Below the pieces are notes generated by a model that saw nothing but the letters and a program-made list of their open reading frames with translations, was not told the origin of the DNA and did no database searches. The translations under genes and the position numbers were made by a program. Positions 1 to 50,762 of a DNA stretch of 50,762 bases are shown one piece after another. The stretch spans positions 1 to 50,762 of the IMG/VR virus record IMGVR_UViG_3300041407_000073; one strand, written 5' to 3'. The stretch's first letter is position 1; every line of letters begins with the position of its first letter. Source of the DNA: a virus.

Positions 1-127
1 GTCTCCTGCTCTGAGTCATACCATGCTAGAGCGAAAGCCCCGCACAAACTCTTAACAGTGTCATCAACCCCAATCATGGACATGGAGTGGAAAATGTTAT
101 CACTGTCCACCTCAAACTTCTGATGGT
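1..127. repeat. direct terminal overlap, left copy
   Basis: These 127 bases are identical to the last 127 bases of the window (50636-50762). An exact overlap of 127 is typical of a de Bruijn assembler closing a circle at k=127. It therefore probably marks a complete circular or terminally redundant genome rather than a biological repeat. It lies inside a gene whose frame continues correctly across the join. Confidence 0.95.
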
Positions 128-470
128 CAATCAGGAGAGATTGGTTACGCAGCGTACCATTATGTACACCAGTGATGTGGTCGTGCTCAAACGGGTGAGC
201 ATTGACCGAGTTGATCTTACCCTTGGTAGCCCAACGATTATGCCCCAGCAGCACTGTAAGGCGCTTACGGAAGATTTCATCGAAGGACTTGTACTCATAC
301 AAGTCCCAAGGCGTTCCCACTTTCTTTACAACTGATGTCTGACCCCTTGCATCCACCCCAAGAATCCCGGTGGAGTGTGGGCCACGGATGGTATCAATCT
401 CCAGCAAACGCTTGAAGACGCCCTCTTCTTTCCCGCCGATTTCACCGGCCACTCCGACGATGCCACAAAT
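1..470 (-). CDS. class II glutamine amidotransferase, 5' part (continues at 50762..49732)
   Basis: This is the N-terminal part of a 457-residue protein that crosses the circular join. The glutaminase domain (N-terminal nucleophile hydrolase, GlmS/asparagine-synthase type) would release ammonia from glutamine. Numbered from the ATT codon at 470, it shows the nucleophile in MCGIVG (C2), RWATKG (R79, W80, T82), H92, HNG (N104, G105) and VDSD (D122-D124), all matching conserved GlmS positions. The only upstream in-frame ATG (491) has no ribosome site. GGAGG lies 8 nt before ATT, and only the ATT start puts the cysteine at residue 2. A promoter-like motif ends about 35 nt upstream. Neighbours are a class I amidotransferase upstream and two amidoligases downstream. 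The domain call is secure; the start is inferred. Confidence 0.9.
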   Translation of the reverse strand, partial: MCGIVGVAGEIGGKEEGVFKRLLEIDTIRGPHSTGILGVDARGQTSVVKKVGTPWDLYEYKSFDEIFRKRLTVLLGHNRWATKGKINSVNAHPFEHDHITGVHNGTLRNQSLLIDHQKFEVDSDNIFHSMSMIGVDDTVKSLCGAFALAWYDSEQE

Positions 471-504
471 TTGACTATCCTCCAGACTCATCAGAGTCGA
501 AACT

Positions 505-535
505 ATTTTCTAAAATTAATTCAACGGGCTAGCAT
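505..535 (-). promoter_or_regulatory. candidate phage promoter upstream of the class II amidotransferase
   Basis: Read leftward, AATGCTAGCCC (CTAG at 532-529) is followed after 16 nt by TAGAAAATA (512-504). The arrangement and sequence match the element at 46077-46109 almost exactly and four to five others before leftward genes. Predicted transcription would begin near 500, leaving almost no leader for the ATG at 491. The function is inferred from recurrence. Confidence 0.55.
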
Positions 536-539
536 TTAC

Positions 540-635
540 TTACTGTACTTGCAGACCAACCGCCAGTACAAATGCAGCACACACAATGAACGTGCAAATA
601 ACCCAAGTCGCACAGACAGTGTATAGTGGTCTCAT
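540..635 (-). CDS. 31-residue membrane peptide
   Basis: This short gene is coupled to the preceding class I amidotransferase through an ATGA overlap (ATG at 635-633, TGA at 634-632). The product is almost one hydrophobic helix (roughly residues 5-28) with a basic start, MRPLY, suggesting an inner-membrane peptide. No family is recognised. It belongs to a set of very short one-helix proteins in this genome, each coupled to its neighbour. Confidence 0.5.
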   Translation of the reverse strand: MRPLYTVCATWVICTFIVCAAFVLAVGLQVQ

Positions 636-1267
636 GCTCGCAGCCCATGGCAGCGTTCAATCAGCTCGAAGTAGTACTCAAAGCATTCATGACCATAGTC
701 GAAGAATTCCGGGTGGGGTTGGAAGCACAAGGCCTTAGTACTGTCGTAATACACAACCTCTACGTCAATACCAACACCAGCGCGTTGTACAGCACCCTCA
801 TCATCAACGTACTCCTTGTCGCCGCCAAGGTTAGCCTCAGCAAGCAACACACCATCAGCGCCAATACGCATCATCTGATGGTGGGTGGAGCTTACGTCAA
901 TGGTACGGCCAGTAGCCAAATCAGTGAGGGGGTGGTTACGACCTGTAGCATGAGCACTAACATGCTGGTACATACTGCCCCCAGACATAACGTTAAGGAA
1001 CTGACCACCACGACAAATGCCCGCCATAGGAATGCCCATGCGCTGAGCAATGGCAAAGTAACCAGCTTCGAAGAGGTCACGTTTGACAGAGTTGCCAGTG
1101 TAAGGGTGTTGACCCTCACCATATAGCGCAGGGGTGACGTCCTCACCACCAGTGAATTGAATCAAGTCAGCTTGCAAGAAGTTGTCACTCAACTCCCAGC
1201 CAGCGTTCAGGAACATTTGACCATAGCCGCTGTGGTTACCACCGACAATGTAAACTTTAGGCTGCAT
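632..1267 (-). CDS. class I glutamine amidotransferase (peptidase C26-like)
   Basis: A 211-residue protein of the gamma-glutamyl-GABA hydrolase/class I amidotransferase fold. It shows the nucleophile elbow GICRGGQ (C85) and the catalytic pair in QPHPEF (H185, E187), with TGGEDV near residue 40 typical of the C26 family. It could hydrolyse gamma-glutamyl bonds or supply ammonia. Its place next to a class II amidotransferase and upstream of ATP-grasp and COOH-NH2 ligases suggests a role in making or trimming an amide-linked product. The start at 1267 is chosen because GGAG lies 7 nt upstream; a longer in-frame extension to 1357 lacks a site. It overlaps the upstream gene by 11 nt. Confidence 0.85.
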   Translation of the reverse strand: MQPKVYIVGGNHSGYGQMFLNAGWELSDNFLQADLIQFTGGEDVTPALYGEGQHPYTGNSVKRDLFEAGYFAIAQRMGIPMAGICRGGQFLNVMSGGSMYQHVSAHATGRNHPLTDLATGRTIDVSSTHHQMMRIGADGVLLAEANLGGDKEYVDDEGAVQRAGVGIDVEVVYYDSTKALCFQPHPEFFDYGHECFEYYFELIERCHGLRA

Positions 1268-2150
1268 TAATCTTCTCCATGAGGGTTGTGTTAGCCCACT
1301 TAGCCATAACTTCAATGGCTTTAGCGTAAGGCACCTGATTGTTATCTTTAACAGCAATGGCCTTGACGAAGGGGTTGAGGTTTACTTTAACTTCACCACG
1401 ACACAGGGCGTAAGGAAAGTTGTCTTGAACAAACTTGTAATAACTCCCGACCCTGTCCTCTCCATACATGGCGTCGTAGCCTTCATAGTTATAGCCAGCA
1501 GACAATAGGCCATTAGGCTTAGTCACCTTATGGTTAAGGAAGTTTTGCATGTTCTTCCAACCCATTACAGCAGGGTTAATAGAGCAGTGACCAGAGGACA
1601 GGCCAGTCCATGACGTAGCTGAGCCCTCATGTGGGTTGTTACTACAACTAACCGTGTGCCCAAGGAGGAAGGCAAGGTCTTCGTTAACCCCAGCCTTAGC
1701 CAAACTGTATGTAGCAGCAGCCACATACGTGTACTCCCACAAGCGTCTGAGAGCCACCATACCAGCCGCTACGAGGTTAGACGGGTGGTCACCAGAGGAC
1801 ACAGTGTATCGTTGCTCCAGCGCCTTCTCAGCGTCCTTGGTGATGAAGGTTTCAGCGTAGGGGCTACGGTTAAGTATGTAATCAACAAACCACAGCTCAA
1901 CTTCCTTGTCCAACACACGACCTGTGGCATAAACTTCACCTGTCATCAGCGCATTCACTATACGCTTAGAGTGGGTTAAGGAGGACAAGCCAGCATGACA
2001 AGCGTGGTTATTACTGAACTTGTGTACGCTGTCGTCCTTCTCAAACACTCCGACAATGGCAGTGTTCTCGCCCCACTTACCATTGCCGTCAAGCTTATCA
2101 ATCAAAGCCTTGGCAGCAACCTCTGTCCTTGCATCAAGTGACAAATCCAT
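1257..2150 (-). CDS. conserved-looking 297-residue protein of unknown function
   Basis: I do not recognise a family. The protein is soluble, with aromatic- and glycine-rich stretches and several cysteines and histidines in the middle (HTVSCSNNPHEG, SGHCSINP), but no classical metal or nucleotide motif. A GAGGG site precedes the ATG. It overlaps the class I amidotransferase by 11 nt, so the two are probably translated together. It may therefore act in, or be a substrate of, the amidoligase pathway; that is inference from position only. Confidence 0.7.
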   Translation of the reverse strand: MDLSLDARTEVAAKALIDKLDGNGKWGENTAIVGVFEKDDSVHKFSNNHACHAGLSSLTHSKRIVNALMTGEVYATGRVLDKEVELWFVDYILNRSPYAETFITKDAEKALEQRYTVSSGDHPSNLVAAGMVALRRLWEYTYVAAATYSLAKAGVNEDLAFLLGHTVSCSNNPHEGSATSWTGLSSGHCSINPAVMGWKNMQNFLNHKVTKPNGLLSAGYNYEGYDAMYGEDRVGSYYKFVQDNFPYALCRGEVKVNLNPFVKAIAVKDNNQVPYAKAIEVMAKWANTTLMEKINAA

Positions 2151-49731: not shown

Positions 49732-50762
49732 TCAATGTTTAACTTGGTTGCTTTTAAGGGACGCTTCGATAAACTCTTGCACTACAGGCAAATCTTTACA
49801 GTCTTGACAGATGAAGTTGGACTTATCCAACCATACAATCTCATCTGAGTCTTCGATGAACGCTATCTGTTTGCAGTTAGCACAACCACCACACACTGCA
49901 AGGTCAAACTCTTCTTCGTTTACAACCTTACCACCGTATACAATGGCACAGTCTGGGTCATCTTCAGGGACGTCAGAGCCAATCTCGGCGGTGGTTTCAG
50001 CAATGGTACGTGGGTCAATTACAGCATAGCTGAGGTCAGGGTTACCAGCCACAGACGAGAAACTGCGAATCTTCCCTTCAAAGTAGCAAGAGCCCCCAAC
50101 AAGCCAGTCCCACATCTTCTGGTCTTGCTCGCAGTAGACACGCAACTCTACGTTACAATCATCTTGTGTAGGGAAACACTGAACGTAACGTTGGCCGGTT
50201 GCAGTGCTACTTTCGGACGAGACGAAGAACTCTACCCGTTCCTGCATGATCAATTCGGACACCGTTACGTTCCCGGTCTTTTTTGTGTCAGTGCCCTCCT
50301 TGTTGCCCTTAGCTGCATCAAACACGTTACCAGTAGCAGACTTACCACCAGTAGCTGTGCTCCCTGATGTGCTGTACGTCTTTGGCGCAATGACGTATTT
50401 ATGCAGCTCAAGGTCACGCACCTTAGTATTGTCCAACTCCTTAGGTGAATAGCTCATTTGGATGTTGTAGCTCATCAACACACCAGAGGCTGGCTCGAAG
50501 ATTGGGTGGTGTTTGATGCCAGCAATGGCAAGAGTAACTTCCAACATCCATGACTCAGACGCCCAGAAGATTGTTTTACGGCTCTCGTTCATGCAGATGT
50601 ACAAGGGGCGCTCTGTATTGCGTACAAAGTTCATTGTCTCCTGCTCTGAGTCATACCATGCTAGAGCGAAAGCCCCGCACAAACTCTTAACAGTGTCATC
50701 AACCCCAATCATGGACATGGAGTGGAAAATGTTATCACTGTCCACCTCAAACTTCTGATGGT
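49732..50762 (-). CDS. class II glutamine amidotransferase, 3' part (begins at 470 across the join)
   Basis: The frame continues from position 1. This part holds the end of the glutaminase domain (GAFALAWYDSEQETMNFVRN; then a serine/threonine-rich linker TYSTSGSTATGG), followed by a C-terminal region of ~150 residues. That region has a zinc-finger-like end, CGGCANC and a later CQDC. The linker suggests two separable modules, and the tail may dock on a ligase or a substrate. It precedes the type 2 ligase by 10 nt. Confidence 0.88.
   Translation of the reverse strand, partial: HQKFEVDSDNIFHSMSMIGVDDTVKSLCGAFALAWYDSEQETMNFVRNTERPLYICMNESRKTIFWASESWMLEVTLAIAGIKHHPIFEPASGVLMSYNIQMSYSPKELDNTKVRDLELHKYVIAPKTYSTSGSTATGGKSATGNVFDAAKGNKEGTDTKKTGNVTVSELIMQERVEFFVSSESSTATGQRYVQCFPTQDDCNVELRVYCEQDQKMWDWLVGGSCYFEGKIRSFSSVAGNPDLSYAVIDPRTIAETTAEIGSDVPEDDPDCAIVYGGKVVNEEEFDLAVCGGCANCKQIAFIEDSDEIVWLDKSNFICQDCKDLPVVQEFIEASLKSNQVKH
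50636..50762. repeat. direct terminal overlap, right copy
   Basis: Identical to positions 1-127; see that entry. When the circle is closed, this copy should be removed. Confidence 0.95.

What the first reader, a model, noticed from the sequence alone, without database searches (positions are those of the whole stretch)
465..491. Probable ATT start codon exposing the catalytic cysteine
The in-frame ATG (491-489) has no ribosome site and lies only about 8 nt from a predicted transcription start. GGAGG stands 8 nt before ATT (470-468), which is followed directly by TGT. Starting there gives MCGIVG, the required Cys2 of class II amidotransferases. ATT starts are very rare (infC, pcnB) and subject to IF3 control.
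Basis: partly seen in the sequence, partly recalled or inferred. Interest (0 to 1): 0.7.

Follow-up and report, generated by a model that had tools for sequence, protein, structure and literature searches.

The report
Phage enzyme gene starts at AUU
A phage enzyme gene appears to start at the very rare codon AUU instead of AUG, and many distantly related phages do the same at the same spot, usually with a small RNA hairpin pressed against the ribosome-binding site, so current annotations cut off the enzyme's catalytic residue.

Summary
In detail: on the minus strand GGAGG (483-479), 8 nt, ATT (470-468), TGT (467-465), giving M-CGIVG of a class II glutamine amidotransferase. Comparison strongly supports an ATT start. 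Relatives, some with near-identical coding sequence to each other, have ATG, TTG or GTG exactly at this codon, or ATT/ATC with no other in-frame start before a stop. In a sample drawn without regard to start, 50 of 59 phage genes had ATG, 9 ATT/ATC, none anything else. Start type switches at least 6 times on well-supported branches. The spacer is 8 nt in 17 of 17 although 7-9 was allowed. In ATT/ATC loci without the hairpin the start often lies inside the end of the preceding gene. No true case was found in 84,980 prokaryote species. The same site occurs before other phage genes (csrA, virion genes), and homing-endonuclease genes often sit just upstream. I read it as an AUU/AUC initiation element made usable by hairpin, strong SD and fixed spacing. 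IF3 dependence and expression level are untested.

The parts
468..470 (-). ATT start codon of the class II glutamine amidotransferase
   Evidence: homologues carry ATG/TTG/GTG or ATT/ATC exactly here with no other start
465..467 (-). TGT, codon 2: catalytic Cys exposed after removal of fMet
   Evidence: Invariant C1-G2 in a 20-sequence alignment; aligned with residue 1 of the GlmS chain 1xff
479..483 (-). Shine-Dalgarno GGAGG, 8 nt before ATT
471..478 (-). 8-nt spacer ATAGTCAA; ATA after GGAGG is shared by most ATT/ATC loci
485..498 (-). Stem-loop GACTC-TGAT-GAGTC ending 1 nt before GGAGG
   Evidence: in the predicted minimum-energy fold; arms vary between loci while pairing is kept
489..491 (-). 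In-frame ATG, rejected as the start; it lies in the loop and 3' arm of the stem-loop
   Evidence: No SD; absent from relatives L001, L002, L003, which have no start here
504..514 (-). TTTAGAAAATA, an A-rich element shared upstream of this gene in several Zobellviridae; role unknown
1..470 (-). 5' part of the class II glutamine amidotransferase gene (GATase_6) from the ATT start
   Evidence: Pfam PF13522 E=2.6e-12; PDB GlmS E~1e-9
49732..50635 (-). Rest of the same gene across the circular junction of the record
540..635 (-). Small 31-codon ORF with a hydrophobic stretch between the two amidotransferase genes; its stop lies about 70 nt before ATT
   Evidence: Read directly
632..1276 (-). Upstream class I-type amidotransferase (peptidase C26) gene
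   Evidence: Pfam PF07722 E=3.3e-18

Best explanation
Translation of this phage class II glutamine amidotransferase begins at the AUU at 470-468, read by fMet-tRNA; deformylation and methionine removal expose the catalytic Cys. AUU is a poor start codon, and the site is built to make it usable: a strong SD (GGAGG), a spacer of exactly 8 nt, and a stem-loop whose base ends 0-2 nt before the SD. I infer that the hairpin keeps the SD free of competing pairing and, by abutting the SD/anti-SD helix, holds the 30S subunit in one register long enough for a near-cognate codon to be accepted; the output would be moderate and sensitive to IF3. Loci without the hairpin tend to place the ATT/ATC inside the 3' end of the previous gene, where terminating ribosomes could serve the same need. 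Shown by comparison: the start position, the recurrent use of ATT/ATC, the hairpin and the spacing. Inferred: how the hairpin acts, IF3 sensitivity, and any regulatory benefit. (The confidence below is for the ATT start; for the hairpin as a functional partner of the ATT start I would say 0.7, for the specific docking mechanism 0.35.)
For:: six relatives and some 17 non-redundant phage genes in all have ATT or ATC before TGY-GG with an in-frame stop 4-17 codons upstream and no ATG/GTG/TTG between; sample chosen on a distal motif, 59 resolved starts: ATG 50, ATT/ATC 9, other 0; stem score 6.4 in ATT/ATC loci against 1.55 in ATG loci (P=5e-9) and 2.3 in shuffles; spacer 8 nt in 17/17; in 2.1 Mb of phage DNA, hairpin+GGAGG with ATY peaks at spacing 8 (14 cases; 3 at spacing 5 are adjacent codons of the same sites); with ATG there are 6 scattered cases; start type changes at least 6 times on starred branches (19 on the best tree); hairpin goes with ATT/ATC in about 4 of 6 independent pairs and never the other way; arms pair 4/4 within a locus, 1.9/4 between loci; one site per genome, at this gene. 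E. coli infC has GGAGG-8 nt-ATT; same site before csrA and others.
Against: No protein or ribosome-profiling data. In the unbiased sample only about half of the distinct ATT/ATC loci have the hairpin. RNAalifold finds no common fold because the stems lie in different registers, single-sequence fold energies are not unusual, and some predicted folds draw SD bases into weak pairs. The conserved ATA after GGAGG is not explained. The sign test on independent pairs reaches only P=0.125. The phage's host and its IF3 are unknown; the phage encodes no IF3.
Confidence: 0.92

Rival explanations
1. Translation starts at ATG 491 (for instance as a leaderless message) and the short propeptide is removed to free the Cys, as in B. 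subtilis PurF.
For: The ATG is in frame and intact. Propeptide-bearing class II amidotransferases exist (general knowledge).
Against: No SD before it; no promoter found. Relatives L001, L002 and L003 have no ATG there, and GP100, PPAT, PA11 start directly at the Cys codon. The ATG lies in the hairpin. The extension is not conserved.
Confidence: 0.04
2. The hairpin-SD-ATT/ATC site is mainly a by-product of homing-endonuclease invasion: a gene inserted at the ATG takes over the old ribosome site and start, its 3' end supplies a new ribosome site, and the near-cognate codon is a leftover or spoils the endonuclease target. (This concerns origin and purpose; it is compatible with the ATT start.)
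For: HNH genes lie directly upstream in L041, L050, L036, Klyazma L266 and Vibrio 275E43-1 L267, and before the csrA (L237) and small-ORF (L254) cases; in L267 the endonuclease stop lies in the hairpin loop. FBPa8 against PPAT: a small ORF has taken the old SD and ATG, and the amidotransferase has hairpin+ATT.
Against: Most ATT/ATC loci, the window included, have no endonuclease directly upstream. Pairing is kept while arms diverge, which a relic would not do. Some endonuclease-bearing loci have ATG or TTG.
Confidence: 0.25
3. The ATT/ATC is used with termination-reinitiation from the preceding gene (translational coupling), and the hairpin is secondary.
For: Upstream stops lie at -7 in several loci and at +10 in L147, L148, L152; GGA-GGA-TAG/TAA gives a stop in one frame.
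Against: In the window, L026 and L036 the nearest upstream ORF ends 68-85 nt before the start; stop positions vary from -85 to +10.
Confidence: 0.2
4. ATT/ATC replaces ATG to avoid AUGUG: ATG before TGY always creates an overlapping out-of-frame GUG start.
For: AUGUG sites can start both frames in E. coli (PMC9841429); every ATG-start gene here has such a GUG frame.
Against: Most homologues keep ATG; ATT-TGY makes an overlapping UUG instead; the out-of-frame ORFs are short (mostly 8-16 codons); csrA and virion genes with ATT have no TGY codon 2.
Confidence: 0.08

Closest known systems
E. coli infC (IF3) AUU start
   Same: AUU start, GGAGG exactly 8 nt upstream
   Different: Cellular gene, autoregulated by its own product; no stem-loop abutting the SD; next residue unrelated
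E. coli pcnB AUU start
   Same: AUU start limiting translation (title of Binns & Masters 2002, cited in PMC13009471)
   Different: Weaker SD context, cellular gene
S. aureus infC (AUA), cvfC1 (AUU), ccpN (AUA) with extended SD (PMC13009471)
   Same: Strong SD motif directs initiation at AUU/AUA and is conserved among relatives
   Different: Extended SD pairing rather than a stem-loop; cellular genes
Aeromonas phage 25 seg43 (PMC2988022)
   Same: Stable RNA hairpin immediately upstream of the ribosome site that does not sequester it; phage gene; homing-endonuclease context
   Different: No AUU start reported in the passages read; single case, function undetermined
SD-sequestering hairpins of phage homing endonucleases (mobE, I-TevI; PMC2988022)
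   Same: Hairpin at a phage ribosome site
   Different: Here the stem ends before GGAGG instead of covering it

Membership tests
Class II (Ntn) glutamine amidotransferase | Cys directly after the initiator codon | tested here: met
Class II (Ntn) glutamine amidotransferase | Pfam domain and catalytic-pocket motifs (GHNR-AT, HNG, DS) | tested here: met
   PF13522 E=2.6e-12; invariant columns R78, A80, T81, H102-G104, D121-S122
Class II (Ntn) glutamine amidotransferase | Glutaminase activity | not testable with these tools
   Needs an assay
AUU-initiated genes (infC/pcnB type) | AUU in place of AUG with no usable alternative start | tested here: met
   the window itself has one unsupported in-frame ATG
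AUU-initiated genes (infC/pcnB type) | Strong SD at about 8 nt | tested here: met
AUU-initiated genes (infC/pcnB type) | Repression by excess IF3 | not testable with these tools
   Needs a reporter with IF3 levels changed
SD-sequestering translational hairpin (mobE type) | SD paired inside the hairpin | tested here: not met
   Stem ends 0-2 nt before GGAGG
Protein-bound translational operator (T4 gp43, MS2 type) | Conserved loop or stem sequence | tested here: not met
   17 distinct 3' arms in 21 loci, loops of 3-6 nt
Rfam-catalogued RNA element | Match to a covariance model | tested here: not met
   No hit up to E=1

The most novel reading that the evidence does not exclude
A recurrent phage translation-initiation element, stem-loop + GGAGG + 8 nt + AUU/AUC, in which a hairpin docked against the SD/anti-SD helix licenses initiation at a non-AUG codon; it is gained and lost repeatedly, partly through homing-endonuclease insertion at gene starts, and is hidden from annotation wherever no conserved N-terminus pins the start.
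Probability: 0.4. Interest if true: 0.8.

Novelty: new variant of a known kind. Interest (0 to 1): 0.62.

Why it matters
AUU starts are known for only a few bacterial genes. Here the catalytic N-terminal Cys pins the start, so one enzyme family acts as a natural reporter: about 15% (9 of 59) of the phage genes sampled start at ATT/ATC. Gene finders do not allow these codons, so several deposited phage records (K4, FBPa8, Asterion, Klyazma, 275E43-1) place the start 9-16 codons downstream and lose the catalytic residue. If the hairpin is what makes AUU usable, it is a simple, testable cis-element for non-AUG initiation.

Tried and rejected
Conserved propeptide: rejected. Upstream leader ORF ending in GGA-GGA-TAG as a general rule: rejected, stops vary from -85 to +10. 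SD-sequestering hairpin: rejected for most loci. Rfam: nothing. RNAalifold on the MAFFT alignment: no structure because stems are in different registers; replaced by stem statistics against ATG loci and shuffles and an arm-swap comparison. Prokaryote genomes: two pattern hits, both chance. Phage-encoded IF3: none. Frameshift from the overlapping UUG/CUG: short unrelated ORFs, not consistent. Profile search with the 20-protein alignment failed for lack of a conserved stretch, replaced by a DNA motif scan. csrA: only one phage with the site was found.

Full report
What is there. The minus strand at 500-462 reads TCGACTCTGATGAGTCTGGAGGATAGTCAAATTTGTGGC. The frame holds ATG (491-489), GGAGG (483-479), an 8-nt spacer, ATT (470-468) and TGT (467-465). 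The protein is a class II glutamine amidotransferase domain (Pfam GATase_6; GlmS and PurF structures aligned from their N-terminal Cys). The window is a whole circular phage record: its first 127 bases return at its end, and the gene continues into 50635-49732. The nearest named phages are Pseudomonas phage GP100 and the PA11/K4/O4 group, Zobellviridae.

Where translation starts. In relatives the codon directly before Cys is ATG (GP100, PPAT, Vibrio phages, CW02), TTG (PA11, HHBS10_2), GTG (KZY1), ATT (L001, FBPa8, Asterion) or ATC (L002, L003, K4). In the last two groups there is no ATG, GTG or TTG between the nearest in-frame stop and Cys. A pattern scan of 2.9 million viral contigs for SD + ATH + TGY-GG gave 27 loci, most of them true amidotransferase genes with no alternative start; with the window and two named phages they make 17 non-redundant sites. 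To avoid choosing on the start codon, I scanned for a distal motif (GHNR-AT-G...AHPF): of 59 resolved genes 50 start with ATG, 9 with ATT/ATC (one pair among the nine is a duplicate) and none otherwise. The corresponding scan of 84,980 bacterial and archaeal species gave two chance hits and no amidotransferase.

Directly before GGAGG stands a stem-loop, GACTC-TGAT-GAGTC (498-485). Sixteen of 17 non-redundant ATT/ATC loci from the SD-based scan have a stem of 4-6 pairs ending 0-2 nt before GGAGG; stem scores average 6.4 against 1.55 in 37 ATG-start amidotransferases with the same SD (Mann-Whitney P=5e-9) and 2.3 in shuffled flanks. Arms differ from locus to locus while pairing is kept: own arms pair 4 of 4, swapped arms 1.9 of 4, with 17 different 3' arms in 21 loci (the arms were picked for pairing, so this comparison shows sequence diversity, and the test against ATG loci carries the statistical weight). 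Asterion (AAAGCC-TGT-GGCTTT) and K4 (AACCTC-GTT-GAGGTT) are a direct compensatory pair in otherwise alignable sequence. The spacer is 8 nt in all 17 although 7-9 was allowed; ATG loci range from 4 to 9. In 2.1 Mb of phage DNA, hairpin+GGAGG followed by ATY piles up at spacing 8 (the set is enriched in amidotransferase loci). The window and 14 other phage genomes carry GGAGGRTA-N5-ATY exactly once each, always at this gene. In the unbiased sample, however, only about half of the distinct ATT/ATC loci have the hairpin; in three of the others (L147, L148, L152) the start lies inside the 3' end of the upstream class I amidotransferase gene.

History. On a tree of 86 amidotransferases the start type changes at least 6 times on well-supported branches and 19 times on the best tree; hairpin presence follows ATT/ATC in about four of six independent pairs, never the reverse (sign test P=0.125, too few pairs for significance). 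FBPa8 and PPAT have nearly identical coding sequences and flanks, but FBPa8 carries an extra small ORF that has taken the old SD and ATG, and its amidotransferase then starts at hairpin-GGAGG-ATT. HNH homing-endonuclease genes sit directly upstream in L041, L050, L036, Klyazma, Vibrio 275E43-1, WD615, T2S1 and UFV-P2 (Pfam HNH_3 for the first three). Klyazma and Asterion have the same hairpin-SD-start with and without the endonuclease. Of these eight, the first five use ATT/ATC, WD615 and T2S1 use TTG, and UFV-P2 uses ATG, so the link to non-ATG starts is suggestive but loose, and the eight were not sampled evenly.

Beyond this gene. Searching for AGGAGGATAGTNNCATT and TAGGAGGATAGNNNNATT without any protein constraint found further ATT starts with no other in-frame start: a phage CsrA (L237, hairpin; Pfam CsrA E=1.7e-24 when the ATT is read as Met), a virion-like ORF (L240, hairpin), two small Lys-rich ORFs (L254, L341, hairpins), tail-fibre-like proteins (L236, L319), and capsid-, tail- and portal-like ORFs (L287, L307, L285), the last groups without an abutting hairpin. 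Apart from CsrA these identities are by eye from the N-terminal sequence.

Mechanism. Shown by comparison: the start codon position, its recurrence, the hairpin and the fixed spacing. From established knowledge: AUU is accepted poorly because IF3 destabilises non-canonical start pairing (PMC2268962), infC uses AUU with the same 8-nt spacing, and strong SD contexts support AUU/AUA starts in S. aureus (PMC13009471). Inferred: the hairpin keeps the SD open and fixes the 30S register, so that a near-cognate codon is tolerated; IF3 sensitivity; any benefit to the phage. A hairpin standing just before a phage ribosome site without covering it has been noted for seg43 of Aeromonas phage 25, with function undetermined (PMC2988022).

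Verdict. The ATT start is very likely (0.92); the hairpin as its functional partner is likely (about 0.7); its exact action and the regulatory purpose are open. Novelty: a new variant of a known kind (non-AUG initiation), with an unrecognised structural partner and wide phage distribution. No paper describing it was found in the open-access library, which does not cover most subscription journals.

Noticed in passing
L237, contig IMGVR_UViG_3300014732_000049: Phage-encoded CsrA with hairpin GAGGC-GAAG-GCCTC, AGGAGGATAGTCCC and ATT start, directly after an HNH endonuclease gene whose stop lies in the SD.
   Followed up: partly
L236, L319, L287, L307, L285, L240, L254, L341: Further phage ORFs (tail-fibre-, capsid-, tail-, portal-like, small Lys-rich) whose only in-frame start is ATT 8 nt after GGAGG.
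   Followed up: partly
L266-L270 (Klyazma, 275E43-1, WD615, T2S1, UFV-P2): HNH homing-endonuclease genes repeatedly inserted just before the class II amidotransferase gene; the endonuclease 3' end often forms one arm or the loop of the hairpin.
   Followed up: partly
Public records of K4, FBPa8, Asterion, Klyazma, 275E43-1 (L008, L006, L014, L266, L267): Annotated start of the amidotransferase lies 9-16 codons downstream and omits the catalytic Cys.
   Followed up: yes
window 1-127 and 50636-50762: Exact 127-bp end repeat: the window is a complete circularly assembled phage genome.
   Followed up: yes
window 504-514 (minus): TTTAGAAAATA is shared before this gene by several Zobellviridae, in both ATG and ATT alleles; role unknown.
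   Followed up: no
L147, L148, L152: ATT/ATC starts without the hairpin but overlapping the 3' end of the upstream class I amidotransferase gene; shared AGGAGAGT-N5-ATY.
   Followed up: partly
ATT/ATC loci, just after GGAGG: ATA directly after GGAGG is conserved beyond what SD pairing explains.
   Followed up: no
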